Part shown: positions 335-63,442 of the stretch, one piece after another
Position numbering within the stretch: the stretch's first letter is position 1
Layout of the letters: the number at the start of each line of letters is the position of its first letter
Assembly: GCA_963921795.1 (NCBI GenBank)
Contig: OY997656.1
Coordinates: forward strand, 58,818,795 to 58,882,794
Direction: 5' to 3'
Source: Nannobrachium achirus
Taxonomy: Eukaryota; Chordata; Actinopteri; Myctophiformes; Myctophidae
Length of the DNA: 64,000 nucleotides
The notes under the pieces: model-generated
Told to the model about the DNA's origin: nothing
The model's input: the letters and a program-made list of their open reading frames with translations, nothing else
The model's database searches: none
Position numbers and translations under genes: made by a program

Positions 335-772
335 CAGTGGTTCTCAACCTGTGGCTCGGGACCCCCTGGGGGGTCACCACATTATTTTGGGGGGGTCCCC
401 AGATGATTAACTTAACGTGCAACATTGTTTTCTCACTCAACAGTAAACAATCCAACATAAAGTTTATGTGTATAGAGGGTATCTGCACATTTCTAAAGTG
501 AAAATGTAAGGACTTTTTTAACACCTCTAAAATGACAAATTACACATTGGCCAAATTGTCAAATATTAGAGGCAGAAATTTTGCTGCGAGGCGTTGTGAG
601 CATGTAGATCTGCTATTTTCACTATAGAACAGTGTTCTCAACAGTGTAGAGCAGTGTTTCCTCAACTCTTAGTGCTCGTCAGGGTGGGGGGGGGGGGGGG
701 GGGGTCCCCACTCCCCAGTTAAAATATGATTATTTTTGGGGGGTCGCAGGCTGAAAAGGTTGAGAACCACGG
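335..772 (+). mobile_element. hAT MITE, family A (SPIN/Charlie-like ends)
   Basis: The left end CAGTGGTTCTCAACC is mirrored by GGTTGAGAACCACGG at the right end. A perfect 8-bp target duplication TATTATGT flanks the element (327-334 and 773-780), which is the hAT signature. There is no transposase ORF. One arm of the shared hairpin module (GAGCATGTAGATCTGCTA) remains at 586-622; its partner arm has been lost. The end sequence resembles SPIN and Charlie hAT elements of vertebrates, from memory only. Confidence 0.88.
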
Positions 773-1727
773 TATTATGTCAAAGTATTTAGCCAGAGAT
801 GCCAACGTTATTCATTGCCAGCCCATCTGAGCACGTGTAGGCAGCAGCAGCCTCAGATTGATGTCATGATTGTATTTTTAGGCTATGGCTGTCTAGAGGG
901 TTGGAGCAGATGAGTTCATAGGCTGATGCTTGCTGTGGCCTCCTCGTCACAGATAATGGGACTTGGTGACATTGTAGGAGAGGTTGTTTTGCGAAGGGAT
1001 GCAATTGTTAAAAATATGTTCTAAACAGTGGCAATTTTTGGAATTTGAAATGTACAGATTTTGTCTTTGATAGAGAAGTGGCTGTTTTGGTCAGTTCTAT
1101 TTACGGTATGTATTGTTTTGTGAAGCGGATATTGATTGTTGGTTGTTTGTTTTGAGCATGTTGTTTAACTTGTTTTGTCATATTGGAGAATTCAAAGGCC
1201 ATTCTTAGTGTAACTTGCTGTAGCTGTTATCATGTCCAACCTAAACTAATATCGTTGTTTCGCTGCTAGTTGAATGTTGGTTTACATTAAACGAGGCACA
1301 GGCAAGCCATCTGAACTTTAGATGCTGTTATTCAAATGGAGTATAGGCTACAAATTGTCCAATTTGATAGATATCTTAATGGTATGAAAACTCAAAAACT
1401 CTTCTACTTTCTATCCTTTCGCTTTAACTTGATGCGTTATGTAGTCACTAGTTAGATTGACAAAGACACAGGCAAAACGACAAATCAGACGTGTATTATT
1501 ACATTGTTGAATTTGTGCTCTTAAAGGAATGCTATATATTCTTTGTGTTGTGTTTACATTTGTGCTTGTGTTGACCTGCAGAGATGCACTGCCCTCTAGC
1601 TGTATTTTGGTGATTTTTTCCTGTGTTTTGAGCCCTCAAAACATCCTCATTTATGAAAACAAACAGTGAAACACCAAAATGCAGAGCTAACACTATCACA
1701 TTACTCCACTGGCTGATAACGGCTGAT
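773..1727. other. Intergenic, nothing recognised
   Basis: About 950 bp of AT-rich unique-looking sequence. I see no ORF with coding character, no tandem repeat and no element ends. Confidence 0.4.
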
Positions 1728-1896
1728 CAGGGGTTCCCAAACTTTTTTGTCTCAGGGCACTCCATAAATATTTCTTTTAATCCGAGGCACCCCTACATTA
1801 TAATTTTCACTCCCAGCCCCTTAATTTATAGCATATCGTCGTTGTCGGGTGGAAACCTTGTATGTCCAAAACTGTTGTAGATCGGCTGTTTTGGCC
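1728..1896 (+). mobile_element. Truncated hAT family E with family B piece inside
   Basis: CAGGGGTTCCCAAAC at 1728 is the family E terminus. At 1833 the family B end (ATATCGTCGTTGTCGGG) begins, followed by a hairpin arm fragment TGTAGATCGGCTGTTTT. The copy stops at about 1896 and no right end was found. The same E-then-B order is seen at 59232-59693 and, inverted, at 62732-63182. Confidence 0.7.
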
Positions 1897-2969
1897 AGTG
1901 ATGGGTAGAAAACATGTATATATTTTTTTCTTATGTGTAAACACAGGGCAAAGTTATTTAAGTTGAATGAAAACGCAACCATGGCAACATAATTGATATA
2001 GAATGCTTCAAAACTGTAATAACAGTGAACCCTTAATAACGTACCATCTGTGTGGTAGTGCTGCAAACTCCTGAACGGTGTAATATTTTGTGTAGTGACT
2101 TTTGATTCTAATTCTTACAGCTACATAGAAAATGGGCAATTTAGCTCACTTAAGCTCTATCTACTTTGTCGTACGACAATCAGCTATGATAGCTGATTGC
2201 AGCACGTTTGGAGTGACGTGTTGCGAGTGACACTTTGTGAAGGTAACCAGAACGCCCCCATCTTTTCGAGCAGACCACTCGCCCCGAACTCTCGCCCCCA
2301 GTGGGCGGACCACTCACTTGCCGGTGCAGAACGCTGGCGCACTGAACACTCGCCCTGACGTTTCGGAATGCTCGCTCTGTTTGGTGAGACCAGACTAGAG
2401 ACTACAGCCCCTAACGTTAAGTTATGAAGTGGTTAGGAACAGTTGCGATGACAAAGGTGTGCCGTCTAAGGTGGCGTTGAGCCACGTGAGATACTGCCGT
2501 GCCGAACATGGCAGAGTCCGCTTCAGCCTTTCGAGTTACGTCCCGATAGGGACAGAATCGTAAATCATCAGCTATTTCTTTAGCACTAGAGTAGCCTTCT
2601 GTCGCCTCTCAGGTGCATTCAGCAGCTTTTTTCACACCATCAGTCCAACCGACTTGATCTCCCGACTTCATTCGACTGCCAGTCTGTAGTAATCTGTAGT
2701 CTGTTTGGTGGAGAGATACTAAGTCCATCTTTGTGTTTTCCCAGGTGTGGTTGTGGAGAGGGCATGGAGCACCCTATACACAGAGGGGAGACCATGATGC
2801 CTAACGGACTACATGACAGGTACTGTACCACTAACCACTGTTATTAATCATGACAGGTACCGTACTGTTACCACTCTGTAAGTAATCATGTGTAACCAGA
2901 AGGCCCCAGAACACACTCACCCCGAAGTTATTCTGTGGACCATTCGGCAGTTCTTTTATTCTTGTATTC
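1897..2969. other. Intergenic, nothing recognised
   Basis: About 1.07 kb with no supported gene. The 2210-2420 stretch is richer in GC and repeats short phrases such as CACTCGCCCC and CTCGCCCTGACG, but it has no clear unit or open frame. Confidence 0.35.
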
Positions 2970-3083
2970 GTTTTACTGAGGGTTCAGGTTAGGTTTAGAC
3001 ATAGTTTTACTGAGGTTAAGGTTAGGTTTAGACATAGTTTTACTGAGGTTAAGGTTAGGTTTAGACATAGTTTTACTGAGGTT
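2970..3083 (+). repeat. 33-bp tandem repeat, about 3.4 copies
   Basis: Units start at 2970, 3004, 3037 and 3070. Each reads GTTTTACTGAGGTTAAGG and then TTAGGTTTAGACATA. The first unit is 34 bp, the next two are 33 bp and the last is partial. Confidence 0.9.
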
Positions 3084-8048: not shown

Positions 8049-8350
8049 GCTATTTAGGTCGGATATGCATTATTACACATTTTATGCTTTAACTATTAAA
8101 GAATAGCAGATCTACAAGCTCACAGCACGACACTGAGTGCCGCGCTGCTGAGCTTGTAGATCTGCTATTTCTTTTTTAAATCGTGAAAATTTGTTCAAGC
8201 CTTTGGATATTTTGACCCGATTCTGTAAGTGTCTTCTAAATCCTTCTAAGTTTTTTTTTTTTTTAAACCAGTGTTTCTAACTTTCTCAAACTTTATTTTC
8301 ATTTCAAGGACCCTCAGTTTGTTATGCATTAGGCAGGCCACAGACAGACA
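8049..8350 (+). mobile_element. piggyBac-like element (family PB), left part with hairpin
   Basis: TTAA at 8045-8048 is followed by GCTATTTAGGTCGG, a worn version of the PB end CCCATTTAGGCCT. The hairpin module occupies 8101-8170 (GAATAGCAGATCTACAAGCT ... GAGCTTGTAGATCTGCTATT). After it come the PB interior phrases 'ttttgacccgattct' and 'aaatccttctaag', then a hAT-like 'ccagtgtttctaact' patch. No right end was found. Confidence 0.7.
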
Positions 8351-8994: not shown

Positions 8995-9188
8995 GTGAAA
9001 ATAGCAGATCTACATGCTCACAACGCCTCGCAACGCGAGGCGTTGTGAGCATGTAGATCGTCTATTTTCACAATAAAACCGTGTTATACAAAATCCCTTT
9101 ACTCTTAGTGCTCGTCAGGGTGGGAAGGTCCCCAGTTCACATGTGATTATTTCAGGGGTCACGGCCTGAAAAAGGTTGAGAACCACTG
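8995..9188 (+). mobile_element. hAT family A, right half with complete hairpin
   Basis: The hairpin at 8995-9070 is intact: TGAAAATAGCAGATCTAC, CATGCTCACAACGCCTCG and their complements. It is followed by the family A right end, 'cttagtgctcgtcagggtggg' and GGTTGAGAACCACTG. The left half is missing. Confidence 0.8.
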
Positions 9189-9835: not shown

Positions 9836-10371
9836 CAGAGGTGGGCAACTTTGATGATGGCAAGGGCCACTATATTTCCACCTTCACTCCAGAGGGCCAC
9901 AATGCATATTGCTACGTCCTACTTTGTCATTCTAGTATGTCATACAAAAGAAGCAAAAGTAGCTGATCTACAAGCTCAAAACACATCGCGCTGCAAGATG
10001 TGTTTTGAGCTTGTAGATCGGCTATTTTTGCTTCTTTTGAATTGGAATCCTGAATTTTCTTTTTGTTATTTTTTAATTGGAATCCTGAAATGTTAACATT
10101 TTGATTACATTTCCAACGCATTTAGTTATATACTCATGTTAACTTTATGAACTTAAATACAAATACATTGGACATACAAAAAAATACATTTTAATACTAC
10201 TATACTAGTTATTAAGCTACAAATAGACTGACGGAATTATAGCAGATCATGGTTGTAATTGTAACAGCTGAAATCAATAATATATTCAGTATTCCGATAT
10301 TAACCTGTGGGCCGCATTAAGTGAAGGTGGGGCCCACATGTGGCCCCCGGGCCGTCAGTTGCCTATGCATG
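9836..10371 (+). mobile_element. hAT MITE, family H (copy 1)
   Basis: The left end CAGAGGTGGGCAACT pairs with a worn right end AGTTGCCTATGCATG. The 8-bp duplication is CTCTAGGT/TTCTAGGT (9828-9835, 10372-10379), with one mismatch. The hairpin at about 9945-10040 has arms of about 43 bp with two mismatches. Outside the shared core the arms continue as CAAAAGAAGCAAAA and its complement, specific to this family. Subterminal sequence is rich in GGGCCGC and TGTGGCCCCC. Confidence 0.87.
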
Positions 10372-11230: not shown

Positions 11231-12153
11231 TAGGGTTGGACACGGTAACCGCCGTACCGCGGTAAACCGAGGTCTACCGCGGTGTCAGTGTGCTTACCGC
11301 GGTAAAAAAAGACAAAAAAAAGTATTTTTTTTTTATTGGAAAACAAGCAAGTTTTAAAACGGGAGAAGCGAGGACCGCATGCGCTCCATGCCGCTCTGCT
11401 CTGGGCCGTGTACCACATGTTTGGAAGCCACACTGGGAGACACAGATAGTCAGACCTACACAGGGCAGCACAGCAGCACAGAGCAGCGTAAACTTTCTCT
11501 GTAATCCACACGACACAAGGATGTTAATACATACCTTGTGTTGTGGCATATCTTTTTTTATTCATACGGATTTCTGGCGGAGCGCGGGCCGCGTGGACTA
11601 AAACCGAAAATGAAACTATTTTACTTTTTCCACCGCGTTGCGCGTTGTGCCCCGTCCGGCGGCGCGTCGGCGATTTTATAACCTTTTCTGTCAAGTCTTG
11701 TAACTAAAACCTGTATATAGCAGCACTCAATCACTGCGATTTGAGAGTTGAGACGTGACGTGAGTTTACAGAATCACTGTACACGATCTGACTACCCTTC
11801 CTCTTCTGGTTTGTTCACACAGCTGTTTGTGTCTGAAAAGCTAAGTAGCTAGCCTACGTTACTATGGTAACCCGACAGTGCAGATCTAAAAGCTCAGAAC
11901 GCGTCACGGATGCGATGTGTTGTGAGCTTGTAGATCTGCTCCTTTCAAAGCCATACCCGCTGTGCTGTACGGAGAAGTATAACTCGGGCAGTCAGGCTGT
12001 GGAGAGGCGACTTTTGGGAAGATGATTGCAATATTTTGGCTTATCGCCGAACCTTAATTAATAGATACGGGGGTGCGGTAATTACCGCAGTACCGGCGGT
12101 AAATGGGAAGACGGTAATCGCGGTAACAAAATGTCGATACCGCCCCAGGCCTA
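11231..12153 (+). mobile_element. hAT MITE, family L (923 bp)
   Basis: The ends TAGGGTTGGACACGGTAAC and CGATACCGCCCCAGGCCTA are flanked by a perfect 8-bp duplication GTGCTGGT (11223-11230, 12154-12161). Subterminal repeats of 'taccgcggta' occur at both ends. The hairpin module at 11879-11947 keeps CAGATCTAAAAGCTCAGAAC and GTGAGCTTGTAGATCTGCTC. No transposase ORF. Confidence 0.88.
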
Positions 12154-13900: not shown

Positions 13901-14325
13901 TAGGGCTGTCACAATTATTACATAATCGTCTAATCGTGATTTTTTTTTACATAATCGTGATTATTTTTCATAATCGTCATAATCGTTTCCATGTTGAAAA
14001 ATTTTCATATATTACAAAAAAAGGTCAAACATTGTGGAAATAGCCGATCTACAAGCTCACAACGCGACGCGACGCGGCGCGTTGTGAGCTTGTAGATCGG
14101 CTATTTCCACTATCAAAGTTATTTTTTAAGTAGTAAGTTGTCAAATATGTCAGTAATGTCTTTGTATATTCAGGTTATGTGTCATTTCTACCATGTGCAA
14201 CTTCAAAGCCTAAAAGCCAAACAGAAATGTAATTATCAACGACAAAAACACAATTAAATCGTTAATCGCCAATTATTTGAGTGACAATTAATCGTCATGT
14301 AAAATGTCATATCGTGACAGCCCTA
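13901..14325 (+). mobile_element. hAT MITE, family C (copy 2), intact hairpin
   Basis: TAGGGCTGTCACAATTATTA at the left and CGTGACAGCCCTA at the right have a perfect 8-bp duplication CCTACTGA (13893-13900, 14326-14333). The hairpin at 14031-14112 is near perfect: TGGAAATAGCCGATCTAC ... GTAGATCGGCTATTTCCA with a GC-rich tip. It is inserted in a low-copy repeat whose empty version lies at about 41450-41465. Confidence 0.93.
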
Positions 14326-14346: not shown

Positions 14347-14752
14347 CAGGCCTCTGCCACAATTATGACCTACTCGTCTAATCGCAGTGATTTGAGCTAA
14401 TCGCAATTATTTTGCATTAATCGTCATCATCGTTTCCACGTTGAGAAATGTTCATATAGTTTCAAACACTTTCTCAAAAACGCATCGTGCTGCGATGCGT
14501 TGTGAGCTTGTAGATCGGCTATTCTCACTATAAATGTATACAGAATAAAGTTATTTAATATGTCAGTCATTCCTTTGTATATTTGTTATTTGTCGTCATG
14601 TGCCATGTGCACCTTCAGAGCACATGGCACATGTACACAGAGTGTACATATGCTCCAGTGTTCAGCGACAAAAACACAATTAAAGCGTTAATTGCAATTA
14701 TTTGTGTGACAATTAAAAGTCAGGGTAAAATGTCATAATGGTGACAGCCCTA
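14347..14752 (+). mobile_element. hAT MITE, family C (copy 3)
   Basis: CAGGCCTCTGCCACAATTAT at the left and GTGACAGCCCTA at the right. The 8-bp duplication is CTGCCACT/CTGCCAGT (14339-14346, 14753-14760), with one mismatch. The hairpin at 14478-14528 has lost its left arm. A separate 'gtgccatgtgcaccttcagagcacatggcac' inverted repeat lies at 14598-14630. It sits only 13 bp from copy 2. Confidence 0.88.
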
Positions 14753-16429: not shown

Positions 16430-16815
16430 CAAAAAAAAACAGCTAGCAGATCCACAAGCTGGAGCTAGTATATCTGCTACCTGCGACACATTTTGAGCTA
16501 TTAGATCTGCTATTTATTTTTATTTTTATTGGAATCCTGAAAAGTAAAATTTGTATTTAATTTCAAATGAGCGACTGACTGCATTTAGTTATACTTAGTT
16601 ATACTGTTAACTTCATGGACTTAAATACAAATACTTTGGACATAAAAAAAATATATATTTTTTGTACTATAGTCATACAGTATATAGTAAGTAATTAAAG
16701 CGGGTCATGTTTGTATGTTTGGACATGTAACAGCTGAAATCAATAATATATCAGTATTCTGATATTAACCTGCGGGCCCGGGGCCTCATGCGGCCCGGGG
16801 CCTCATGTGGCATGC
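16430..16815 (+). mobile_element. hAT family H (copy 2), degraded
   Basis: A scrambled hairpin (16441-16520) leads into 'attggaatcctgaaaagtaaaat', 'ttagttatactgttaactt' and 'gatattaacctgcgggcc', matching H copy 1. The left end is replaced by family B-like sequence (TCGGGGGGAAAACCTCATAT at 16386). No target duplication. Confidence 0.7.
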
Positions 16816-17963: not shown

Positions 17964-18494
17964 CAGGGGCGTCACAAGGGGGTGGGGGGGGAAGTGGGAC
18001 TGAGTTACCAGGGCCCAAGGTGGTGGTGGGGCCTGGAATTATTTTATACTTGAGCTATTCAAAAATAGCAGAAATACAACCTCGCTCTGAGCTTGTAGAT
18101 CTGCTATTTTTATTTTTGAAACGTCGTGAAAATGTGTGCAAATCTATTTTTTGTACCATTTTTAACTCAAATTCTGCTTCTGGGAGGGGGGGTCCCTGGA
18201 GCTAAATATTTTGAGATGGAGGGGGGGGGTCCATGGGCCAAATACAAATCATTTTGGGGGTCCTTCACATGAAAAAAGTTTGACCACCACTGACATAACA
18301 TAGGTTTTTCAAAAAAAAAAACCTTAGAAGGATTTGAAATATTCAAAGACTTTTTCACGATTCTTCAAAAATAGCAGATCTGTGCCGCGCTGCGAGCTTG
18401 CATATCTGCTATTTTTCGATAGTTAAAAGCACAAGATGTGAACGAATCCAACCGTGTACCCAGCAGGGCCCCAGAAGGTGGTGTGACACCCTTG
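17964..18494 (+). mobile_element. hAT family M (copy 1), two hairpins
   Basis: CAGGGGCGTCACAAGGGGGT at the left and TGGTGTGACACCCTTG at the right are inverted ends. The interior is the PB interior, with worn hairpins at 18060-18117 and 18363-18420 around 'gggggtccttcacatgaaaa'. The 8-bp duplication is not clear. Confidence 0.75.
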
Positions 18495-18837: not shown

Positions 18838-19374
18838 ACCCATTCAGGCCTAGAATCATTGAATGCTTTAACCAGTGAAAAATAGCAGATATACAAGCTC
18901 ACAGCGCGGCACCGAGTGCCGCGCTGCGAGCTTGTAGATCTGCTATTTTTGAAAGAAGTCGTGAAAATCTTGTGCACATCTTTGAATATATGTATTTTCA
19001 AAGCGAACGTTTGTAACATTTTGGGGGTCCTTCACATGAAAAGGTTTGAGAACCACTGACATATAATAGTCGTCTCTCAAGAACAGACTAACTGAGCTGA
19101 GCTGAAGTGAAAAGGACCTTTTCTTTGACGATGGCCGGCCAGATTGCTGACAATAGAAACATAGAGTTTTTAAAAAAAAATCTTAGAAGGATTCAAAAGA
19201 CACTCATAGAATCGGGTCAACATTCTAATTTTCACGATTTAAAAAAAAAATAGCAGATCTACAAGCTCGCAGCGTGGCACTCGGTGCCGCGCTGTGAGCT
19301 TGTATATCTGCTATTTTTCAATAGCTAAAGCATACAATAATGATACACAATAATGTGTACCCGTTCTGAATGGA
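18838..19374 (+). mobile_element. piggyBac-like MITE, family PB (two hairpins)
   Basis: TTAA (18834-18837) then 'acccattcaggcct' on the left; 'ttctgaatgga' then TTAA (19375-19378) on the right. Hairpins at 18878-18953 and 19245-19320 are near perfect (core AGATATACAAGCTCACAGCG or AGATCTACAAGCTCGCAGCG with tip GGCACTCGGTGCC). Between them is a one-sided hAT-like segment, 'aaaggtttgagaaccactgaca'. Confidence 0.8.
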
Positions 19375-21106: not shown

Positions 21107-21520
21107 TTAACCTTAAGGAAGCCCTTGGCGTTAAAAACACGTTAAAATAACGTGGAAACAAAGCCAGTGTCATGTCAAATATTTGCTTCTGGGGGTCCCT
21201 GGAACTGAATATTTTGAGATGGTTGTCTGTGGCCAAATGCATATCATTTTGGGGGTCCTTGACATGAAAGAGTTTGAGAACCACTGACATGGAAACATAG
21301 GTTTAAAAAAAAAAAAAAAAAAAAACATTAGAAGGATTTAGAAGACACTTTATACAATCGGGTCAAAATTTTCAAAGACGATTTCTCAAAAATGGCAGAT
21401 CTACAAGCTCACAGCGTGGGACTCGGTGCCGCGCTGTGCGCTTGTATATCTGCTATTTTTTAACAGTTAAAGCATAAAATAATGACTGGGAATAATGCTT
21501 TCCCAGTCTTAATGTGATAA
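21107..21520 (+). mobile_element. Diverged PB-type element, one hairpin
   Basis: The interior matches PB ('gggggtccctggaactgaatattttgagatgg', 'cagtgt' and 'gagaaccactgaca'). A hairpin lies at 21386-21460. The right end 'cccagtcttaatgtga' is a worn PB end. About 60 bp is directly repeated at the two sides (AAGGAAGCCCTTGGCG near 21116, AAGGAAGCCTTTGACG near 21520), so the true left boundary is uncertain. Confidence 0.6.
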
Positions 21521-25223: not shown

Positions 25224-25266
25224 ATTGAGAGGTTATTAAACTGTCCATGGGATATTTGGGCATTAA

Positions 25267-25861
25267 CCCATTTAGGCCTGAACACATTATGACGCATTAT
25301 TTTATGATTTAAATATAAAAAAAATAGCAGATATACAAGCTCACAGAGCGGCACCGAGTGCCGCGCTGCGAGCTTGTAGATCTGCTATTTTTGAAAAATC
25401 GTGAAAATTAGAATTTTGACCCGATTCTATAATTGTCTTTTGAATCCTTCTAAGATTTTTGGAAAAAACTCTATGTTTCTATGTCAGCAATCTGGCCAGC
25501 CATCGTCAAAGAAAAGGTCCTTTTCACTTAACTGGAGCTCAGTTAGTCTGTTCTTGAGAGACTGCCATGTCAGTGGTTCTCAAACCTTTTCATGTGAAGG
25601 ACCCCCAAAATGATATTTATTTGGCCACGGACCCCCATTTCAAAATATCTAGTTCCAGGGACCACCCCAGAAGCAAAATTTGAGTTACAAACATTCGCTT
25701 TGAAAATACATATATTCAAAGATTTGCACACATTTTCACAAGTTTTTCAAAAATAGCAGATCTACAAGCTCGCAGCGCGGCACTCGGTGCTGCGCTGTGA
25801 GCTTGTAGATCTGCTATTTTTCACTGGTTAAAGCATTCAATAATTCTAGGCCTAAATGGGT
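25267..25861 (+). mobile_element. piggyBac-like MITE, family PB, best copy
   Basis: TTAA (25263-25266) CCCATTTAGGCCTGAAC on the left; TAGGCCTAAATGGG then T and TTAA (25862-25865) on the right. TTAA duplication is the piggyBac hallmark. Near-perfect hairpins lie at 25318-25394 and 25747-25822. The middle holds CAGTGGTTCTCAAACC at 25572, a single hAT-type terminus without its partner. Confidence 0.88.
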
Positions 25862-25949
25862 TTAATTCTTAGCGCTAGTCGTAGATTGTTCCATGAACCT
25901 GGAGCATCAGAACGTGTAGAACCAGTATAACGTATGACCGTGTCTGTAG

Positions 25950-26987
25950 TAGGGATAAAATGTCATATCACGATTATTGTGACACAAGAAATCATGATTT
26001 ACGATATTATCGCGACACTCATTTGCCAAAAATAGCAGATCTACAAGCTTGCAAGGCGTCGCAACGCGACACGTAAGCTTGTAGATCTGCTATTTTTTTG
26101 GCAAAGACATTTTATAGAGTGAAAAAAAAGACTATTGTGTATATTATATGTACCTTTCACCAATTATAGAGGGTTTAAATGTTACCGGATATGCAGCTCT
26201 GTGAATTGATCCCAGTGCATGATTATCCCGATAGTAAGGGGAACATAAGAAAATCTGCGAAGTAAATCGTTTCTTCCATGGGCTACAAATGGCCCCCACA
26301 AAACGTTGAAACGTGATGATTCACCACTAAACCATCATTTTGTGGGTCTGAGTTCAGCTCAAATAAATGGTTTTTGTGCAAAACAAATGCTTGCAATGGA
26401 TTCAGCATCATGAAACACCCCTAGTTTGACCCCTCACATGCTACTTAAAGCAGATTTATTTTTTGTATTTTTTTTCCTGTATAGTAAATTAATGGGACAC
26501 AAACACAAATCAGTTTTTTTTTATGAGGTTTCCCCCGGGAGTTGAATTTCAACCTTTTAGTACATATTATTACACACCTTTAGAAACACATTGGTGAAGA
26601 AATTTCTTAGTAGCGATTTACTTCGCAGATTGGTCAAATATCTTATAAAATCCCCTTACGAGTGTTTTTTATCACGAAATATATATATATATATATTATA
26701 TATATATAATATAGTATCGTCCCTTCCCCAATCTGTAGTGAGGATTTTTTTTACATTTGCGTGTGCATTTATGAAGATGTCTTTACTAATGATGTTGGTG
26801 TGTGTTTATGTTTATTGTTTATGATACTGATACACATGAGCTTTTAGATCTGATATTTGTTTGGCAAATGTTCTGTCCCAGGATAATGGAAGTTGAGGAT
26901 AATTTGATTATTACGATAATATAGTAAATCACAATTATTTTGATCACAACAATCGTGACATGAAATGTTCATATCGGCCCATCCCTA
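25950..26987 (+). mobile_element. hAT family K (copy 1), 1.04 kb, with nested TIR element
   Basis: TAGGGATAAAATGTCATATC at the left and TTCATATCGGCCCATCCCTA at the right. Flanking GTCTGTAG/GTGTGTAT is a weak duplication. The hairpin at 26024-26106 extends into TTTGCCAAAAATAGC and its complement. Another inverted-end element interrupts it at 26253-26630. Confidence 0.78.
26253..26630. mobile_element. TIR element nested in K, superfamily unknown
   Basis: A perfect 17-bp inverted repeat, ATCTGCGAAGTAAATCG and CGATTTACTTCGCAGAT, bounds 378 bp. Family K sequence resumes on both sides. I cannot read a clear target duplication. No ORF. Confidence 0.65.
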
Positions 26988-27626: not shown

Positions 27627-28112
27627 TAGGGCATTCACGAATAGTGATTTTTAGTATTTGAATTATTCGACCTCAAAGTATTCGAATAGTTGAATATTCG
27701 ACCGAACTGACCAAAATGTCAAATATTAAGTAAGCAAGAGGCGAACATTGTGAAAATTGCAGATCTACATGCTCACAATGCCTCGCGTTGCGAGGCATTG
27801 TGAGCAAGTAGAACTGCTATTTTCACAATATTTATCTGCGGAACTGAGTCACATTAAATGTAATACCTACAATTCCAAGTGCTTGTCAGGGTGGGGGTCC
27901 CCAGTTCAAATATGTTTATTTTGGGGGTCACGGCCTAAAAAGGTTTGAGAACCCCTGGTATAGAGCATTATTCATTCTTATGACTTCCTATCTCGCCAAG
28001 CTTTATAAACTATATATTTTTAATTAGAAAACAAAAACATATTCGAATATTCGACTTCGGTGAACAACGTCGAATAGTGACTTTGATATTCGAATATTTG
28101 GTGAATGCCCTA
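27627..28112 (+). mobile_element. hAT family I (copy 1) inside a GT microsatellite
   Basis: The ends TAGGGCATTCACGAATAGTG and TATTTGGTGAATGCCCTA, flanked by GTGTGTGT on both sides. The middle (about 27705-27955) is the right half of family A including hairpin 27746-27829 and 'aaaggtttgagaacccctgg'. Confidence 0.85.
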
Positions 28113-31031: not shown

Positions 31032-31453
31032 CAGGGGTCTTCAACGTTTTCAGGCCAAGGACCCCTTAGTTGAGAGAGAGATGAAGCAGGGACCCCCACA
31101 ACCTGTTCATAGATTCCATATTGTTTCATTGTTTGACAGCACAATCATCAGTGTATTTTGGATTCATGTCAATTTGTGTTTTCAGATATTTAACCACTTG
31201 AACCGTCAATACTTGATAAACTTGAACTTTTACTCTGTACTTAGTCTGCTCTTTTTCTCCTCTACACCAAACTTCTTTGCCAAAAATAGCCGATCTACAA
31301 GCTCTGTAGATCTGCTATTTTTGGCTACAGTTCTCAGAATATGGACACCAGGGTTCAAGTTGTTAGTATAAAAAAGGAGACAGATTTGGAGGACCCCCTG
31401 TAGTAACTCTGAGGACCCCCAAGGGGTCCCGGACCCCCTGTTGAAGACCCTTG
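31032..31453 (+). mobile_element. hAT MITE, family F
   Basis: CAGGGGTCTTCAACGTTTTC at the left and CCCTGTTGAAGACCCTTG at the right have a perfect 8-bp duplication CATTATAC (31024-31031, 31454-31461). A short-tip hairpin lies at 31279-31325, with outer arms GCCAAAAATAGC and its complement. Confidence 0.92.
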
Positions 31454-34075: not shown

Positions 34076-34696
<621 letters not shown>

Positions 34697-37513: not shown

Positions 37514-38000
37514 GATTCACTGTGGGCCCCCCATCAATGTTAACCATTGAAAAATAGCAGCTATACAAGCTCACAGCGCGGCACCGATTGCCGCGCTGCG
37601 AGCTTGTAGATCTGCTATTTTTGAAACAATTGTGAAAATGTGTGCAAGAAACCTATGTTTCTATGTCAGTGGTGCTCAAACCTTTTCATGTCAAGGACGC
37701 CCAAGATGATATGTATTTGGCCACGGACCCCCATCTCAAAATATTTAGTTCCAGGGACCCCCCAAAATATGAGTTACAAATGTTCGCTTAAAAATACATA
37801 ATATTCAAAGATTTGCACACATTTTCACGACTTTTAAAAAATAGCAGATCTACAAGCTCGCAGCGCGGCACTCGGTGCCGCGCTGCGAGCTTGTATATCT
37901 GCTATTTTTCAATAGCTAAAGTATAAAATAATTAAGGCCCCTCCACCACCTTGGGCCCTGGTAACTTAGTCCCACTTTCCTACCCCTTGTGACGCCCCTG
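37514..38000 (-). mobile_element. hAT family M (copy 3), reversed, between CA repeats
   Basis: The right end CCTTGTGACGCCCCTG meets a CA repeat at 38001. The other end is eroded but 'ggattcactg' matches M2. Intact hairpins lie at 37549-37625 and 37836-37910. Confidence 0.8.
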
Positions 38001-40662: not shown

Positions 40663-40908
40663 ATATCGTCGTCGTCCGATGAAAACCTTGTATGTCCAAA
40701 ACTGTTCGTTTAATGCAAAACTAGTGAAAACAGCAGATCTACAAGCACACAACGCCTCGCATCGCGAGGCGTTGTGTGCTTGTAGATCGGCTGTTTTCAC
40801 TACTTTTGTGTGACGGCCTTGTATGATGAAGCAGGGCTTTAATTTTTGTGAAAGACGTACACATTTGAAACTTGGAGATACGAGGTTTCCACCCGACAAC
40901 GACGATAT
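40663..40908 (+). mobile_element. Family B TIR element (copy 1), hairpin at its centre
   Basis: The ends ATATCGTCGTCGTCCGATG and CCACCCGACAACGACGATAT are inverted. The hairpin at 40720-40803 has the core AGATCTACAAGCACACAACG, with outer arms CTAGTGAAAACAGC. It is not bounded by family E here, so B can exist alone. Target duplication unclear. Confidence 0.8.
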
Positions 40909-41549: not shown

Positions 41550-41682
41550 CATATTTTCACAACTTTTTCAAAAAATAGCAGATCTACAAGCTCACAGCGC
41601 GGCACTCGGTGCCGCGCTGTGAGCTTGTATATCTGCTATTTTTCACCGGTTAAAGCATTCAATAATTCTTGGCCTAAATGGG
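41550..41682 (+). mobile_element. Family PB, right end with hairpin
   Basis: An intact hairpin at 41570-41645, then 'aataattcttggcctaaatggg' and TTAA (41683-41686). The left part is missing. Confidence 0.82.
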
Positions 41683-44117: not shown

Positions 44118-44190
44118 GGAAATAGCCGATCAACAAGCAATGACGTGGCGTGTCGCGGCGTGGCGTTGAGCTTGTCGATCGGCTGTTAGC
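44118..44190. repeat. Hairpin module, diverged
   Basis: GGAAATAGCCGATCAACAAG ... GAGCTTGTCGATCGGCTGTT. The matching change ACA to CAA (and TGT to TTG/TCG) in both arms suggests partial co-variation. Confidence 0.7.
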
Positions 44191-44725: not shown

Positions 44726-45187
44726 CAGGGGCAACTGGCGGCCCAGGGGCCACATGCGGCCCCCACCTCCACTTAATGCGGCCCGCAGGTTAATATCGGA
44801 AAACTAATAGACTTCAGGTATTCATTTATTTTCTAAACAAGCAAACATGACCCGCTTTAATTACTTCAGTCTATATTAGTAGCTTATTGACTTAGCACTA
44901 GTCTTTTTTTATGCCCAATATAATTCTATTTAAGTTCATAAAGTTGACATATATAACATTTTAAATTAAATATTTTCAGGGTTCAAATAAAAAAAATAGA
45001 CAAAAATAATTCAGGATTACAATAAAAAAATAGCAGATCTACAAGTTCAAAACACATCACACTGTGGCGTGTTTTGAGCTTGTAGATCGACTATTTTTGC
45101 GATTTTTGACTCTATATGCATTGTGGCCCTCTGGAGTGAGTGTGAAAATATAGTGGCCCTCTCCATCATCAAAGTTTCCCACCCCTG
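44726..45187 (-). mobile_element. hAT family H (copy 3), reversed
   Basis: CAGGGGCAACTGGCGGCCC at the left and AAAGTTTCCCACCCCTG at the right. TTCTATAG is present on both sides (44714-44721 with four extra bases, and 45188-45195). The hairpin at 45024-45100 has the core AGATCTACAAGTTCAAAACA. Confidence 0.82.
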
Positions 45188-47244: not shown

Positions 47245-47766
47245 TTGGGCATTCACCAAATATTCGAATATTCGAATATCAAAGTCACTCTTCGACGTGG
47301 TTCACCGAAGTCGATATATTATATATATATATTTTTTCTCTTTGAAAAATATATTTTATAAAGCTTGGCTAGATAGGAAGTCATAAGCATGAGTTGTCAA
47401 TGCCCCTGGTGGATGAATTTGTCAATGCTCTATACCAGGGGTTCTCAAACCTTTTTAGGCTGTGACCCCCAAAATAAACATATTTGAACTGGGGACCCCC
47501 ACCCTGACAAGCACTTGGAATTGTAGGTATTACATTTAATGTGACTCGGTTCTGCAGATAAATAATGTGAAAATAGCAGATCTACATGCTCACAACGCCT
47601 CGCGTTGCCAGGCGTTGTGAGCATGTAGATCTGCTATTTTCACAATGTTCGCCTCTTGTTTACTTATTATTTGACAGTTTGGCCAGTCCTGTTGAATATT
47701 CCACTATTTGAATACTTTGAGGTTGAATAATTCGAGTACTAAAAATCACTATTTGTGAATGCCCTA
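47245..47766 (-). mobile_element. hAT family I (copy 3) with family A nested
   Basis: TTGGGCATTCACCAAATATT at the left and TTTGTGAATGCCCTA at the right. The duplication is CTTCCTAC/CTCCCTAC with one mismatch (47237-47244, 47767-47774). The inside holds the reversed right half of A: 'aggggttctcaaacctttttag' near 47438, then an intact hairpin at 47567-47648. Confidence 0.88.
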
Positions 47767-48142: not shown

Positions 48143-48297
48143 AACAAACCCATCAAAAGTAGCAGATCTACAAGCTCAAAACCGTTTCAAGCTTGTAGAT
48201 CTGCTACTTTGTTTGACGCTTTTGAATTTGAATCGTTGAGAAAGTGTCAGTCTTTGGACATATGAGGTTTTCCCCCCGACAGAGTGGATATTTATTA
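48143..48297 (+). repeat. Compact hairpin module plus family B-like end
   Basis: The hairpin at 48153-48217 (CAAAAGTAGCAGATCTACAA ... TTGTAGATCTGCTACTTTG) is followed by GGACATATGAGGTTTTCCCC and 'ccgacagagtgga', resembling the B right end. Confidence 0.65.
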
Positions 48298-50498: not shown

Positions 50499-50730
50499 AT
50501 ATTTATTACAGTTATGTTAAGCCTCGAACCAAGCCATCCAGGATGGCAGTGAATCATGAACATACAACCTTTGTTTCTATGAAAAGAACATTTTGAAAAT
50601 CGCTAAAAAAGGGTAGTTATCAAATAATGTAATATTAAAATATGTTTTCAGATTGGATCAAAGGTTGTATGGTCATGATTCACTGCCATCCTGGATGGCT
50701 TGGTTTGAGGCTTAACATAATTGTTATAAA
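50499..50730. mobile_element. Long inverted repeat (fold-back), about 70-bp arms
   Basis: 50499-50572 and 50660-50730 are inverted copies (AGCCATCCAGGATGGCAGTG in the left arm) separated by about 90 bp. Arms are roughly 95% alike. It is probably a fold-back transposon; no target duplication was read. Confidence 0.75.
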
Positions 50731-50793
50731 TACAAATATAAAAAAAAACTTTTGGGAACCTCTGATGTATCTACCCTCTGTGTCATGACAGAG

Positions 50794-51955: not shown

Positions 51956-52388
51956 TAGGGATGGGATGATATGAAAATGTCACATCTAGATTATTGTGAC
52001 AAAATAAATAGCGATTTACGATATTATCGTGATAATCAAAATCCATTATCCTGGGGTGGAACATTTGCCAAACATTTGCCAACATTTGCCAAACATTTGC
52101 CAAAATGCGCTGCGACGCATTGTGAACTTGTAGATATTTTTTGGCAAAGACATAAACTGTTTTTGGCAAAGACTTTCAAAAGACTGTATCAAGTACATAC
52201 ATTATAAGTACCTTTGACCAATTCTAGAGGGTTAAAGTGGTAGTGGCAGCTCAGCAAATAAAAGGTGAATTGATCCCAGTGCATGACGGAGGACGATATC
52301 TCGATAAATTAAATCTCCACAATACGATTATTGTGAGTGTTTTTTTTTATCACAATAAACGATAATATCGCGTATCGTCCCATCCCTG
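51956..52388 (+). mobile_element. hAT family K (copy 2)
   Basis: TAGGGATGGGATGATATGAA at the left and ATATCGCGTATCGTCCCATC at the right, then CCTG. An 8-bp duplication GGAGAGAT (51948-51955, 52389-52396) is perfect. The hairpin at 52070-52146 is decayed: 'ttgccaaa' is amplified three to four times and only TTGTGAACTTGTAGAT remains of the core. Confidence 0.9.
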
Positions 52389-52634: not shown

Positions 52635-52902
52635 CTATGTCGTCACTGTCGGGCAGAAACCTCGTATCTCCAAGTTTCAAATTTGTAAATGTTTTCGCAA
52701 AGCAAAGCCCTGCTTCATCACACAAGGCCGTCGCACAAAAGTTGTGAAAACAGCTGATCTACAAGCACACAACGCCTCGCGGGTGCGAGGCGTTGTGTGC
52801 TTGTAGATCGGCCGTTTTCACTAGTTTAAATCATTTTAAAAATGATACATATAAAACAAACAGTTTTGGACATACAAGGTTTCCACCCGACAGCGACGAT
52901 AT
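52635..52902 (-). mobile_element. Family B TIR element (copy 2), stand-alone
   Basis: TATGTCGTCACTGTCGGGC at the left and CCACCCGACAGCGACGATAT at the right. The intact hairpin at 52742-52823 has the core GATCTACAAGCACACAACGC. No family E ends surround it. Confidence 0.78.
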
Positions 52903-53309: not shown

Positions 53310-53862
53310 CTCATTGAGTGCCAGCCTATCACCACTAGAGGGCGCCCAGTGACCAGAGAATAATAGAGATATGCTGGTAATGCATGCCCAAGCCCTGGAG
53401 CCATGACTTTTTTTACAAAGGAAAGGACACTTTCCTTTGTGCATGTACAGGAAGAGGATGAAGTTAGCTTGAAGTTAGCTATTGGCTACCAAGCATTTTA
53501 GAAGCCTTATTTTCGTCAACTTAGCCATGATTAAACCTTGCACACCTCATGCATGGGAAAAAAACAGAGAAGAATGAGCTCTAAAAAATCCAATGCAATC
53601 CTGGATTGCATTGGAGTGGATTTGTGCAGTTTGTTCACAGCTTTCAAACAAAAAAATCCGATTGGAAATCCGTTCAGGCATTCTTGAGATAATCGCCATT
53701 ATGTTTTACATGTAATGTAAACAAAAATGGCTGCCCTGTATGTTAGATGGGGTTGTATGGGGGTGGAACATGCAAAATCGCGATTGAAATCATGTTCACC
53801 AGATTTGATGGGGTCCAAAAAAAAAAAAAAAAAATTCAAAAAAATTTTTTTCAAAAAAAAAA

Positions 53863-53903
<41 letters not shown>

Positions 53904-54234: not shown

Positions 54235-54845
54235 TAGCCATGTTTCCATAAACTTATTCGAACTAGAGAAGCGAATGATCAGAAATGCGTATTAAGACAA
54301 AGTGAATTTAGCCCATTTGCGGGTGTCATTCGAATTAGCGACGGTCGCATGGGTTGACAGAGTGCTCATCCTGCAAGTTTCAGCGTCCTCTGGAAGGTGG
54401 CCGATCTGCAAGCTCACAGCGCAGCGCTGAGACGCGGATGCGAGCTGCTGTGAGCTTGTAGATCGGCCACTTTTGGGACGCAACACCTTGCGATGAGGAA
54501 GGGTTACCCACGGATGGCTTGACTCCGGGAGGTGAAAACGGGAGGAATTGTCACTCGGTCCGTGTCACTCCGTGTGTAACAAACAACCGTTGTTTACAGG
54601 AGAAAGTGTTAAGTTGGAGGACGATATGGACCCAGAACGTCATAATGTATTCGCATTTATTGTCTGACCCATTTCCATTCACAAATGCACATTTAGTTTA
54701 TTCGATAAAGCCTCAAAATCCACCTCCTCCAAGCGGATAATTTCTTTTGCGGATAATGAAAGTTTATTCGCATTTTGAAGTGTTTCCATAAAAAGATTTT
54801 GCGAATAAGCCATAAATGCGCATTATGAGGCTTTATGGAAACTTA
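54235..54845 (+). mobile_element. Element family U with hairpin
   Basis: TAGCCATGTTTCCATAAACT at the left and GCTTTATGGAAACTTA at the right are inverted ends with 'ttattcg' subterminal repeats. The hairpin at 54395-54475 has arms GGTGGCCGATCTGCAAGCTC and its near complement. The duplication is not clear. Confidence 0.7.
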
Positions 54846-55131
54846 TGTGGACTGAAAATGGAGTAACATGCTCCTATGTGCTTTAGGGGTTGATTATCTA
54901 ACTATTTTAGTCTACCCCTGTTTGTCTTGTTTTATTGATTACCATCTGTGGGGCTGATCTGTATGCATTCTTTTAATTGTATGTGACGAATACAGGTTGA
55001 TTGATTGATACAGTATATGCACAGGTTCATGTCAAATTGTTGAAAAAAACAGTGTGCTGAGAAACATGCATTGAAATGTTTGCATTTTGTAGCAATGCTA
55101 TTGAAATGCAACCCCATTTGTTCTGGTGGCA

Positions 55132-57201: not shown

Positions 57202-57585
57202 AAAGCTCAGACTTCCCACCCGATTCCATTTAGTTTGTCCGGGACTCTGCCTTGTAGAGAGAAAGAGAGATTTCACTTCTTGTGTTCACAAATATTGGCC
57301 TGTCCTAGAAAAAATGTATGAATAACATACAGGGAAATGTGCCTCTGCCCGGTAATTGAACCGCGTAGAGACAACAGAGCGGTGCAATGTGGTGCGGTGT
57401 TGGGGCGCTAGCGCTGAGCTGTGCTCCACACTGGAGCTTAAAATAGCTTTACCTTTTTTCTGTCAGTTCAGGTTTATTCCTACCTGGTACGTACACTACA
57501 CTGAACTGAAAACACCTTTTCTTTTAATAAAAAGATGGTGAAATATTTTGGTCTGTAACAAACTTACTTGGGATCCTTTTTGGAT
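57202..57585. other. Intron sequence, nothing recognised
   Basis: About 380 bp with no supported gene. Confidence 0.35.
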
Positions 57586-59231: not shown

Positions 59232-59693
59232 TTTTAAGTGCTCCTGGGTTCTCAGTACATTATAATATTCACTCCCAGAACCGTATATTTATAGCATATC
59301 GTCATTGTCGGGTGGAAACCTTGTATGTCCAAAACCGTTTGTTTTGTATTTATCGTCTATAAAATGTACTAAATTAGTGAAAACAGCAGATCTACAATCG
59401 CGAGGCGTTGTGTGCTTGTAGATCGGCTGTTTTCACTAGTTTTGTGCGACAGTCTTGTATGATGAAGCAGGGCTTTGCTTTACCAAAAGACGTACACATT
59501 TGAAACTTGGAGATACAAGGTTTCTGCCCGACAGTGACGATATTTTAGTGATTATGTTGCGAGGAAAACGTTGAGATAACAGCCATTTTGGTTAGAACTG
59601 ACTGAAAATAACTTTGTACTTCAAGTTTAAAATGATACTGATGATGATGATATATACCCTAGGGTGCCCCGTCACCCACTTGGAAAACCCCTG
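59232..59693 (-). mobile_element. hAT family E (copy 1) containing family B
   Basis: The right end 'ggtgccccgtcacccactt' and GGAAAACCCCTG is the E terminus; the left end is truncated. Family B fills 59296-59543, with a hairpin at 59375-59439 that has lost its left tip. Confidence 0.75.
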
Positions 59694-61086: not shown

Positions 61087-61092
61087 GTCTGT

Positions 61093-61144
<52 letters not shown>

Positions 61145-61383: not shown

Positions 61384-61763
61384 TAGGGCTGTGACCATTA
61401 TGACATTTTACATGGCGATTAATTGTCAATAATTGCAATTAACAATTGAATTGTGTTTTTTGTCGTTGACAAAATATGGCATATAACCTAAATATACAAC
61501 AAAATGACATATTTTTGACAGCTTTATACTTAAAAAAAAAAAAGAACATTGATAGTGGAAATGGCCGATCTACAAGCTCACAACGCGTTGCGGTGGGTTT
61601 TGAGCTTGTAGATCTGATATTTCCACTTTTATGTTTGAAACTATTCTTTATGAAGTATTAACATCTTTCAACAAGGAAACAGTTATGACAATTAAGACAA
61701 AATAATTGCCATTATGTGAAATAATTGCGATTAGGCAATGATGTAATAACTGTGACGGGCCTA
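61384..61763 (-). mobile_element. hAT family C (copy 5), reversed
   Basis: TAGGGCTGTGACCATTATGA at the left and TAACTGTGACGGGCCTA at the right. The hairpin at 61553-61626 (TGGAAATGGCCGATCTAC ... GTAGATCTGATATTTCCA). The 8-bp duplication is not recognisable. It lies in intron 2, 300 bp after exon 2. Confidence 0.8.
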
Positions 61764-61918
61764 CTAGAAATACCTGGACAAACAAAACCGTTTCATATAC
61801 GTGTGTGAATACAGTTTACTGTGTGTGAAAGAGCTTGGTAGGGAAAAAAGGCTACAGTAACGACGTCAGTGCAGTCATGCACACCACTTAAATAATACAT
61901 AGCGTGCACACTGTGCAC

Positions 61919-62350
61919 GGTACTGTATGAACCATAGTGCACGTTAAGCACTACTGTATGAACCATAGTGCACGTTAAACACTACTGTATGAACCATAGT
62001 GCACGTTAAACACTACTGTATGAACCATAGTGCACGTTAAACACTACTGTATGAACCATAGTGCACGTTAAACACTACTGTATGAACCATAGTGCACGTT
62101 AAACACTACTGTATGAACCATAGTGCACGTTAAACACTACTGTATGAACCATAGTGCACGTTAAACACTACTGTATGAACCATAGTGCACGTTAAACACT
62201 ACTGTATGAACCATAGTGCACGTTAAACACTACTGTATGAACCATAGTGCACGTTAAGCACTACTGTATGAACCATAGTGCACGTTAAACACTACTGTAT
62301 GAACCATAGTGCACGTTAAACACTACTGTATGAACCATAGTGCACGGTAA
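61919..62350 (+). repeat. 31-bp minisatellite, about 14 copies
   Basis: The unit is CACTACTGTATGAACCATAG and TGCACGTTAAA, with AAA/AGC variation at the junction. Confidence 0.95.
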
Positions 62351-62639
62351 GCACACAGAGAGAGAGAGCTATGAAAAAATAATGCAAGCATCACTGTGAA
62401 TGAACACATAATGACTGTTAAACCATGCAACCTTTTGTTAACAAACCCTTTGTTAACACAGTTCTTTACGGCGTGGCTATTCCTCTATAAGAGGGTCCTT
62501 CTGTCTGTCTGTGTCTTGCGGTTGTTTCCTTTGGGGTCCTTGGTATTCATTTCATCAACATATAAAGTAGCATCAAAAACATTCAATATGATCACACGTA
62601 TAAAACACTATATGTACAGAGTAACATCATGTGCAACCT

Positions 62640-63442
62640 TGTTTTCAACATAAAGTTTAAGTGTATATACTATAGAGGGTATCTGCACGTTTCTAAAGTG
62701 ACAATTGAAGGACTTTTTAATACCTCTAAAACAGGGGTTTTCAAAGTGGGTGACGGGGCACCCTGGGGTGCCGCGACGGCAGTCCAGAGGTGCCGCGAGA
62801 TCATTTGATAATATTTGGAATTTATTTGGACACTTGAAGAAATGTTTAGTATCATGTTAAACTTGAAGTACAAAGTTATTTCAGTCAGTTATAACCAACA
62901 TGTCTATTATCTCAACGTTTTTCTCGCAACATATCACTAAAATATCGTCGCTGTCAGGCAGAAACCTCTGTCGCTTGTAGATCGGCTGTTTTCACTAGTT
63001 TAGTACATTTTATAGATGATAAATACAAAACGAACGGTTTTGGAACACAAGGTTTCCACCCAACAACGACGATATGCTATAAATATAAGGTGCTGGGAGT
63101 GAAAATTATAATGTAGGGGTGCCTCGGATTAAAAGAAAATACTTATGTGGTGCCCTGAGACAAAAAAGTTTGGGAACCCCTGCTCTAAAATGACAAATTA
63201 AACAGCCGATCTACATGCTCACAAGTCAACGCCTCGTAACGTGAGGCGTTGTGAGATCTGCTATTTCCACAATAAAATAGCATTGTGAAATCTAAATCTG
63301 TTATTTCCACAATAGAACCGTGCTATACAAAATGTAATGCCTCAGCTCTTAGTGCTCGTCAGGGGGCGGTGGGGGGGGGGGGGTCCCCAGTTAAAATATG
63401 ATTGTTTTGGAGGTCGCGGCCTGAAAAGGTTGAGAACCTCTG
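62640..63442 (+). mobile_element. hAT family A (copy 2), split by element E2
   Basis: The A interior ('caacataaagtttaagtg', 'gagggtatctgca') starts near 62640 without its left end. It is interrupted by E2 and resumes at 63191 with 'tgacaaattaaacagccgatctacat', a damaged hairpin (63201-63272), a G run and the end GGTTGAGAACCTCTG. Confidence 0.83.
62732..63182 (+). mobile_element. hAT family E (copy 2) nested in A2
   Basis: CAGGGGTTTTCAAAGTGGG at the left and AGTTTGGGAACCCCTG at the right, with a perfect 8-bp duplication CTCTAAAA (62724-62731, 63183-63190). The B-like part (62939-63075) keeps only the right hairpin arm. Confidence 0.93.

What the first reader, a model, noticed from the sequence alone, without database searches (positions are those of the whole stretch)
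586..63272. One hairpin module embedded in at least ten unrelated transposon families
Sequence shows about 50 copies of an inverted repeat whose arm core is AGCAGATCTACAAGCTC (or GATCGGCTA / CATGCTC variants). Complete examples: 8995-9070, 9945-10040, 14031-14112, 18878-18953, 25747-25822, 37836-37910, 40720-40803, 41570-41645, 47567-47648, 52742-52823, 54395-54475. The hosts have different ends and even different superfamilies: hAT A, C, D, F, H, K, L, M, element B, piggyBac-like PB and U. Ordinary MITEs share interiors only within a family. Inference: the module is either mobile itself, spread by recombination between MITEs, or kept because it helps their amplification.
Basis: partly seen in the sequence, partly recalled or inferred. 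Interest (0 to 1): 0.88.

Follow-up and report, generated by a model that had tools for sequence, protein, structure and literature searches.

The report
One palindrome inside many unrelated MITEs
In this fish-like genome a nearly perfect hairpin of about 73 base pairs sits inside at least ten kinds of small jumping DNA with different ends, with arms counted in the hundreds of thousands, which suggests that a short palindrome can pass from transposon to transposon.

Summary
Confirmed. The 11 hairpins named are present; the window holds 52 units, 28 two-armed. Genome-wide the 17-base arm occurs 155,994 times exactly, a 22-base arm 750,262 times at up to 3 mismatches, reversed control 8. The unit is a palindrome of about 73 bp, homologous across hosts; 26 of 42 pairs changed on both sides. 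Hosts differ in their ends: eight hAT-like with 8-bp duplications, two TTAA-flanked, others by end sequence only. Outside the hairpin 7 of 276 flank-consensus pairs are clearly alike, all explained. Transfer is visible in places: hATf holds PB1, hATb a hATc piece, hATi a PB2 core, two hATg copies hold different interiors, and one locus joins a PB1 half to a hATe half at the hairpin. Elsewhere the route is inferred. Outer arms are host-specific yet palindromic, suggesting fold-back copying. No empty site, autonomous partner or independent mobility was shown; a benefit to amplification is untested and, given abundant repeats without it, not required. Coral CMITEs are a precedent for shared interiors; this is a new variant.

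The parts
8105..8166 (.). two-armed hairpin, 62 bp core-to-core (PB2-like host)
9003..9063 (.). two-armed hairpin, 61 bp (hATc-like right flank)
9961..10023 (.). two-armed hairpin, 63 bp (host hATh, CAGAGGTGGGCAA end at 9836)
11879..11940 (.). two-armed hairpin, 62 bp, host not identified
14042..14102 (.). two-armed hairpin, 61 bp (host hATa)
16445..16478 (.). hairpin with centre deletion, 34 bp
18067..18105 (.). hairpin with centre deletion, 39 bp (PB2 core within hATi-type ends)
18884..18944 (.). PB2 hairpin 1, 61 bp
19252..19312 (.). PB2 hairpin 2, 61 bp
21394..21454 (.). two-armed hairpin, 61 bp (PB2-like)
25263..25864 (.). PB2 host element with two hairpins, TTAA left, TTTA right
25326..25386 (.). 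PB2 hairpin 1, 61 bp
25755..25815 (.). PB2 hairpin 2, 61 bp
26034..26091 (.). two-armed hairpin, 58 bp (hATd-like flanks, TTTGCC arms)
27627..28112 (.). host hATb, TAGGGCATTCAC ends, 8/8 duplication (in a GT run)
27758..27818 (.). two-armed hairpin, 61 bp, inside a hATc piece
34177..34696 (.). host hATi, CAGGGGYGTCACA ends around a PB2 two-hairpin core; duplication CACACACA lies in a microsatellite
34264..34291 (.). hairpin reduced to 28 bp between AGCT repeats of its arms
34573..34619 (.). hairpin with centre deletion, 47 bp
37556..37616 (.). hairpin 1 of a PB2 core in hATi-type ends, 61 bp
37843..37903 (.). hairpin 2 of the same element, 61 bp
40732..40792 (.). two-armed hairpin, 61 bp (hATe flanks)
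41577..41637 (.). two-armed hairpin, 61 bp (PB2-like right flank)
44124..44184 (.). degenerate two-armed hairpin, 61 bp, flanks unclustered
45032..45092 (.). two-armed hairpin, 61 bp (hATh-like left flank)
47245..47766 (.). host hATb, duplication 7/8
47575..47635 (.). two-armed hairpin, 61 bp, inside a hATc piece
48161..48205 (.). hairpin with centre deletion, 45 bp
52752..52813 (.). two-armed hairpin, 62 bp (hATe flanks)
54399..54468 (.). degenerate two-armed hairpin, 70 bp, flanks unclustered
59385..59428 (.). hairpin with off-centre deletion, 44 bp (hATe flanks)
61384..61763 (.). host hATa, duplication only 5/8
61563..61618 (.). two-armed hairpin, 56 bp
335..772 (.). host hATc, duplication TATTATGT 8/8, with a one-armed hairpin at 598
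13901..14325 (.). host hATa, duplication CCTACTGA 8/8
31032..31453 (.). host hATf, duplication CATTATAC 8/8, holding a nested PB1 at 31190-31366 (TTAA/TTAG) with the hairpin remnant at 31288
51956..52388 (.). host hATd, duplication GGAGAGAT 8/8, with a one-armed hairpin at 52124
62732..63182 (.). host hATg, duplication CTCTAAAA 8/8, with a hATe-type interior and a one-armed hairpin at 62971
14504..14520 (-). one-armed remnant; 23 others at 598, 5440, 10525, 12861, 15230, 15611, 15769, 16495, 18394, 26838, 29340, 29840, 30609, 31288, 36317, 44327, 44594, 46885, 48009, 52124, 53090, 62971, 63204 (the 4-mismatch ones may include chance hits)

Best explanation
The feature is an internal palindromic cassette of about 73 bp, of single origin, carried by non-autonomous DNA transposons (MITEs) and multiplied by their hosts' transposases. 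It passes between families in two ways: a MITE that bears it inserts into another MITE, which then amplifies as a composite and sheds the vehicle's ends; and, as inferred, by recombination or template switching at the palindrome during repair of transposition gaps, where any two 3' ends that stop inside the palindrome can anneal. Fold-back copying at the centre would keep the arms complementary and would explain the short host-specific extension of the palindrome. Shown: homology of the hairpin across hosts, largely unrelated hosts, foreign MITE sequence around it in four hosts, one half-and-half junction at the hairpin, palindromic host-specific outer arms, arm covariation. Inferred: repair-linked transfer, fold-back copying, and the ancestor (perhaps a MADE1-like palindromic MITE).
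For: Flank consensus pairs: 7 of 276 alike at z>6, all explained, while hairpins align between hosts. Borrowed interiors: PB1 in hATf; a hATc piece in hATb; a PB2 core in hATi. Two hATg copies share ends (94 columns 88%, 75 columns 79%) but one has a hATe-type interior and the other a PB1/F21-like one. At L029 832-840 a PB1/hATf flank (110 bp, 96%) meets a hATe flank (102 bp, 91%) inside a hairpin remnant. Pairing on 41 copies of exactly 61 bp: 85.8% of cells against 77.7% shuffled, 26 of 42 pairs changed on both sides, score 0.251 against 0.129, slid 0.041-0.071. Outer arms of one host match over a mean of 12.8 bp in 6 hosts, 6.0 bp between hosts, 0 of 5000 derangements as high. In hATe both orientations of an A/C difference between the arms occur, and 17 intact pairs in the listing are 6 AA, 3 CC, 8 mixed, as expected for independently assorting arms.
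Against: For most contexts (hATd, hATe, hATh, hATj, PB1, PB2, F16/19, F22) no clear vehicle remnant lies next to the hairpin. The L029 junction is one locus and could be a deletion between neighbours. No pre-insertion copy was found: 103 of 108 flank hits that reach the junction carry the hairpin, as do 25 of 41 truncated hits, for 18 of 24 consensuses that had been chosen because of the hairpin; hits may repeat. Seven further pairings that involve the mixed cluster F0 (PB2, hATi, hATb, hATc) gave arm matches of only 6-9 bp and were left out of the derangement test. The count of further pair types did not exceed shuffles (63 against 60.3, 107 of 500). Letters at core positions 12 and 15 stay mostly family-specific, so exchange is not constant, and the A/C site could be a mutation hotspot. 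Mismatches at positions 3 and 7 show that arms are not always corrected.
Confidence: 0.54

Rival explanations
1. The palindrome is itself a mobile element (a MADE1-like MITE of another superfamily, with 30-bp inverted repeats and a one-base centre) that inserted separately into each host.
For: Sharp symmetric edges near -6 on both sides; flanking TA/TA in most copies would suit a TA duplication; 13 of 90 two-armed units have neither flank clustered.
Against: The flanking letters are complementary rather than direct repeats: hATe has CAGC...GCTG, and extensions of 10-17 bp are palindromic and host-specific in six hosts. No empty site was found. The unclustered copies look mostly degenerate (by eye).
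Confidence: 0.18
2. The hairpin is retained because it helps host elements to multiply (a cis-acting transposition or replication aid, as has been proposed for fish inverted-repeat elements; content of that proposal recalled).
For: Abundance; present at most host flanks sampled (ascertained by the hairpin); sequence plus pairing conserved between families; enriched near high-copy bases.
Against: Abundant dispersed repeats without it exist. Within families arms diverge about as fast as flanks: 9.5% and 10.6%, slower in 9 of 18 clusters. Association with abundance may be hitchhiking.
Confidence: 0.17
3. The hairpin works as RNA: a precursor of a small RNA whose conserved stretch of about 22 nt in the stem (-5 to +16) is the product.
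For: Information is near or above 1 bit over these 22 positions except position 3; the stem extends beyond it on both sides.
Against: The stem is nearly perfect with almost no loop; no Rfam family matches the window at gathering thresholds; no expression data; the same pattern follows from DNA processes.
Confidence: 0.06
4. All hosts descend from one ancestral element with a conserved centre and diverged ends.
For: Several hAT-like hosts share outer arms TAGTGRAAAY, and some pairs align beyond the hairpin at 69-79% over 105-132 columns (hATa-hATe, hATe-hATh, PB2-hATh, hATd-hATf).
Against: Two target-site classes (8 bp and TTAA); 269 of 276 flank consensus pairs stay below z 6 while cores differ by only 13.5%.
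Confidence: 0.05

Closest known systems
CMITE families of Acropora corals (PMC2872659; abstract, passages and Discussion seen)
   Same: MITEs with different TIRs share one internal region of about 75 bases that is more conserved than the TIRs; a CMITE insertion made a new composite element.
   Different: CMITEs are TTAA-flanked and piggyBac-like; the printed 60-bp interior is not a long palindrome (-11.0 kcal/mol against about -53 for three copies here) and is another sequence; here hAT-like and TTAA-flanked hosts share it.
MADE1 / miR-548 palindromic MITE (recalled)
   Same: A palindrome of about 80 bp spread in a vertebrate genome.
   Different: MADE1 stands as its own mariner MITE; here the palindrome lies inside other MITEs.
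Angel and other short inverted-repeat elements of teleosts, Izsvak et al. 1999 (seen only as an entry in the reference lists of PMC2872659 and PMC6004289; content recalled)
   Same: Fish inverted-repeat elements and the idea that folding aids amplification.
   Different: I recall no shared module across families with different ends; the text was not available.
V highly conserved domain shared by V-SINEs and the MITE MER6 (PMC6887750; abstract seen)
   Same: A conserved domain moved into an unrelated transposon class and was amplified by it.
   Different: A SINE domain, with no palindrome mentioned in the abstract; MER6 and its variant rather than many families.
Selfish palindromic repeats of Volvox organelles (PMC2670323) and prokaryotic REPs (PMC3733652); starts of abstracts seen in a search listing
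   Same: Short palindromes present in many copies.
   Different: Organelle or prokaryote genomes; not described there, as far as seen, as transposon interiors.

Membership tests
hAT superfamily (hosts) | 8-bp target-site duplication with hAT-type TIRs (TIR type recalled) | tested here: met
   Eight host ends with 8/8 duplications and a hairpin or hairpin arm inside, hATi only in a microsatellite
hAT superfamily (hosts) | relation to a hAT transposase gene | not tested
   PF05699 search did not complete
piggyBac superfamily (PB1, PB2) | TTAA target-site duplication | tested here: met
   TTAA at both ends in 3 of 5 PB1 and 2 of 3 PB2 hairpin-bearing paired copies; the others have one changed letter
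piggyBac superfamily (PB1, PB2) | terminal motif CC[C/T]T | tested here: not met
   Ends read CCACTTG and CCCATTT; motif as stated in PMC2872659. Filed only as TTAA-flanked
piggyBac superfamily (PB1, PB2) | relation to a piggyBac transposase | not tested
   PF13843 search did not complete in 15 tries
CMITE-like shared-interior MITEs | different TIRs with one conserved interior | tested here: met
CMITE-like shared-interior MITEs | homology to the CMITE interior | tested here: not met
   Only a fold and 8-mer comparison: the coral 60-mer does not fold alike; 5 of 90 copies share any 8-mer, chance level not computed
Independently mobile palindromic MITE (MADE1-like) | target-site duplication or empty site around the bare palindrome | tested here: inconclusive
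   None found in the flanks or hairpin-less copies examined; no related genome held

The most novel reading that the evidence does not exclude
A bare palindrome of about 73 bp behaves as a hitchhiker of transposons: it is captured into unrelated MITEs by fold-back DNA synthesis at transposition gaps, writes a few host bases into its own stem each time, and its arm words have thereby come to head the list of frequent non-simple 17-mers in a vertebrate-like genome sample.
Probability: 0.27. Interest if true: 0.85.

Novelty: new variant of a known kind. Interest (0 to 1): 0.62.

Why it matters
How MITEs get their interiors and why some explode in number are open questions. A single palindrome shared by hAT-like and TTAA-flanked MITEs at some 10^5 to 10^6 copies gives a natural experiment: the same insert in many hosts. 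It makes two ideas testable, transfer of sequence between transposons by nesting or gap repair, and promotion of amplification by a hairpin. Repeat annotation could also merge unrelated families through it.

Tried and rejected
Chance palindrome: rejected. One ancestral host: disfavoured. Known structured RNA: no Rfam hit in the window at gathering thresholds. 'PB3' (TTAAGTAAAAGTATCA) was first taken as a TTAA host and dropped: it is interior sequence of hATj. Empty sites in hATj: of the copies looked at, L018, L023 and L024 are larger deletions and L020 carries a short remnant; the rest could not be interpreted. Hairpin instability compared with flanks: inconclusive, because flank gap rates were as high and alignments ran into non-homologous flank; centre deletions are common (34 of 88 two-armed units shorter than 61 bp) but no excess is claimed. 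Terminal-repeat reading (arms as TIRs of a longer element): only looked for by eye, no support. IMG/VR scans for exact words of the arm and of hATj: 0 hits. Literature: the arm words are in no held paper; searches showed CMITE as the nearest precedent and no report of this module among what was listed; most subscription papers are not held. Transposase ORFs: the 45 of 139 ORFs listed were read by eye only. The likeness of hATj to a common teleost hAT MITE that elsewhere lacks the hairpin is recalled, not tested. That the genome is a fish's is an inference; the species was not identified.


Full report
OBSERVATION. The window carries 73 arm cores at up to 3 mismatches and 52 units at up to 4 mismatches, 28 two-armed and 24 one-armed. 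The window is G000:C19:58818795-58882794 of a 1.6585-Gb assembly. There the exact 17-mer occurs 77,977 + 78,017 times, and the 22-mer AAAATAGCAGATCTACAAGCTC at up to 3 mismatches 375,162 + 375,100 times; the same words read backwards give 0 and 8. In 26 arbitrary 10-kb stretches (248,814 non-N bases) 97 units were found, 54 two-armed, which extrapolates to about 0.65 million (95% 0.51-0.81 million); arm words head the list of non-simple 17-mers there, followed by words that look like one tandem repeat.

ANATOMY. Over 88 two-armed units (window and all loci, two near-duplicates left out) the commonest core-to-core length is exactly 61 bp, in 41; 34 are shorter and 13 longer. The 61 bp are 30 + 1 + 30. 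With RAAAAT and ATTTTY the shared unit is about 73 bp. On the 41 full copies with 12 extra bases each side, 85.8% of cells pair, 26 of 42 pairs show changes on both sides, and the covariation score is 0.251 against 0.129 when shuffled and 0.041-0.071 when slid; the number of further pair types does not exceed shuffles (63 against 60.3, 107 of 500). The shuffles do not allow for relatedness. An example folds as DNA at -51.8 kcal/mol, z -15.8. Between hosts the sequence is conserved from about -6 to +19 and identity falls to background by -7, but pairing between the two sides of one copy stays above control to about -9 to -11. On consensus sequences of six hosts the outer arms match over 14, 13, 17, 12, 11 and 10 bp (one mismatch allowed, mean 12.8), against 6.0 between hosts; none of 5000 derangements reached it (maximum 9.0). 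Seven pairings that involve the mixed cluster F0 (PB2, hATi, hATb, hATc) gave 6-9 bp and were left out of that test.

HOSTS. Ends plus target-site duplication with a hairpin or arm inside support hATa TAGGGCTGTCAC, hATb TAGGGCATTCAC, hATc CAGTGGTTCTCAAC, hATd TAGGGATGGGACGATA, hATe CAGGGACGTGCTGG, hATf CAGGGGTCTTCAAC, hATg CAGGGGTTTTCAAA and hATi CAGGGGYGTCACA with 8-bp duplications (hATi, and one of the hATb copies, in a microsatellite), and PB1 TTAACCACTTGAAC and PB2 TTAACCCATTTAGG with TTAA. hATh, hATj and the F16/F19 family are supported by end sequence only. The names are mine. 'hAT' rests on duplications and ends, since the transposase searches did not complete; PB1 and PB2 lack the CC[C/T]T motif, so they are called TTAA-flanked only. 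Of 248 flanks, 170 fall into 24 clusters and 78 stand alone. Of 276 pairs of cluster consensuses, 7 are alike beyond z 6, and each is explained by left/right of one host, subfamilies, or borrowed pieces. In single-copy alignments hosts match mainly over the hairpin (about 59-91 columns, 69-89%). Longer matches occur for nested pairs (up to 201 columns) and, at 69-79% over 105-132 columns, for hATa-hATe, hATe-hATh, PB2-hATh and hATd-hATf; the consensus comparison did not confirm these last beyond the hairpin. Two arm types were counted genome-wide at up to 2 mismatches: TAGTGGAAAT 115,142 (which also admits TAGTGAAAAT) and hATe-type TAGTGAAAAC...GCACAC 102,015, controls 0.

TRANSFER. Some hosts hold the hairpin with sequence of another MITE: PB1 within hATf; a hATc piece (by eye about 50 bp on one side, through to its TIR on the other) within hATb; a PB2 core within hATi; PB2's own interior holds a hATc-like end. 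Two hATg copies share their ends but not their interiors: W 62732-63182 has a hATe-type interior (99-104 columns, 88%), L004 1269-1696 a PB1/F21-like one. At L029 a PB1/hATf flank and a hATe flank meet within a hairpin remnant of some 8 bp; it is the one clear mixed junction besides L004 among 51 binned flank pairs, which may count some twice. About ten flank contexts remain for which the route is inferred. I favour capture at transposition gaps with fold-back copying, because the stem extension is host-specific and short. Position 3 of the core is A or C (T probably from CpG decay of C) in every arm class except PB2, which is nearly all A. In the listing, 17 intact hATe pairs are 6 AA, 3 CC and 8 mixed, as expected for independent arms (counted by eye from the 100 listed of 102,015 places), and 11 hATe units of the sample show both orientations. 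Exchange, flipping or a mutation hotspot could each cause this. Letters at positions 12 and 15 stay mostly family-specific, which argues against constant free exchange.

FUNCTION. Arms diverge within families about as fast as flanks (9.5% and 10.6% over 272 pairs; slower in 174 pairs and in 9 of 18 clusters), so individual copies show no clear constraint; between clusters the core differs by 13.5%. With the hairpin masked, 42%, 49%, 56% and 47% of the bases that match at least 1, 3, 5 and 8 other loci lie within 250 bp of a hairpin, against 22% of all bases; but at least two abundant repeats have none (families told apart by eye). So an amplification benefit is possible, not shown, and not required.

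COMPARISON. The nearest published case is the CMITEs of corals (PMC2872659; abstract, passages and Discussion read): different TIRs, one 75-base interior, and a composite made by insertion. There the hosts are of one type and the printed interior is not a long palindrome. A conserved domain shared by SINEs and the MITE MER6 (PMC6887750, abstract) is a second analogue. I therefore rate this a new variant of a known kind.

Noticed in passing
window 55027-57276: A tandem array of a 45-bp unit (15 residues in translation), about 2 kb long, open in several frames on both strands.
   Followed up: no
window 4064-4699, 38265-38528, 46108-46425; L021 6548-7207: An abundant dispersed repeat (CAAACTTTRGAAGSCAAT...GCCAATCAGGA) without the hairpin, matching up to 9 other sampled loci.
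   Followed up: partly
window 29496-29572, 35444-35518, 45369-45439, 48773-48824, 49633-49771, 50500-50732, 53817-53894: Further palindromes of about 52 to 236 bp that are not among the hairpin units.
   Followed up: no
core position 3 in all arm classes except PB2: An A/C dimorphism shared between families, with T as probable CpG decay of C; unexplained.
   Followed up: partly
L029 677-950: A hATf/PB1 half joined to a hATe half at a nearly deleted hairpin.
   Followed up: partly
L024 2153-5065: Reading frames that look like a Penelope-type retroelement (by eye).
   Followed up: no
L014 3141-6694: Reading frames that look like GIMAP-type GTPases (by eye).
   Followed up: no
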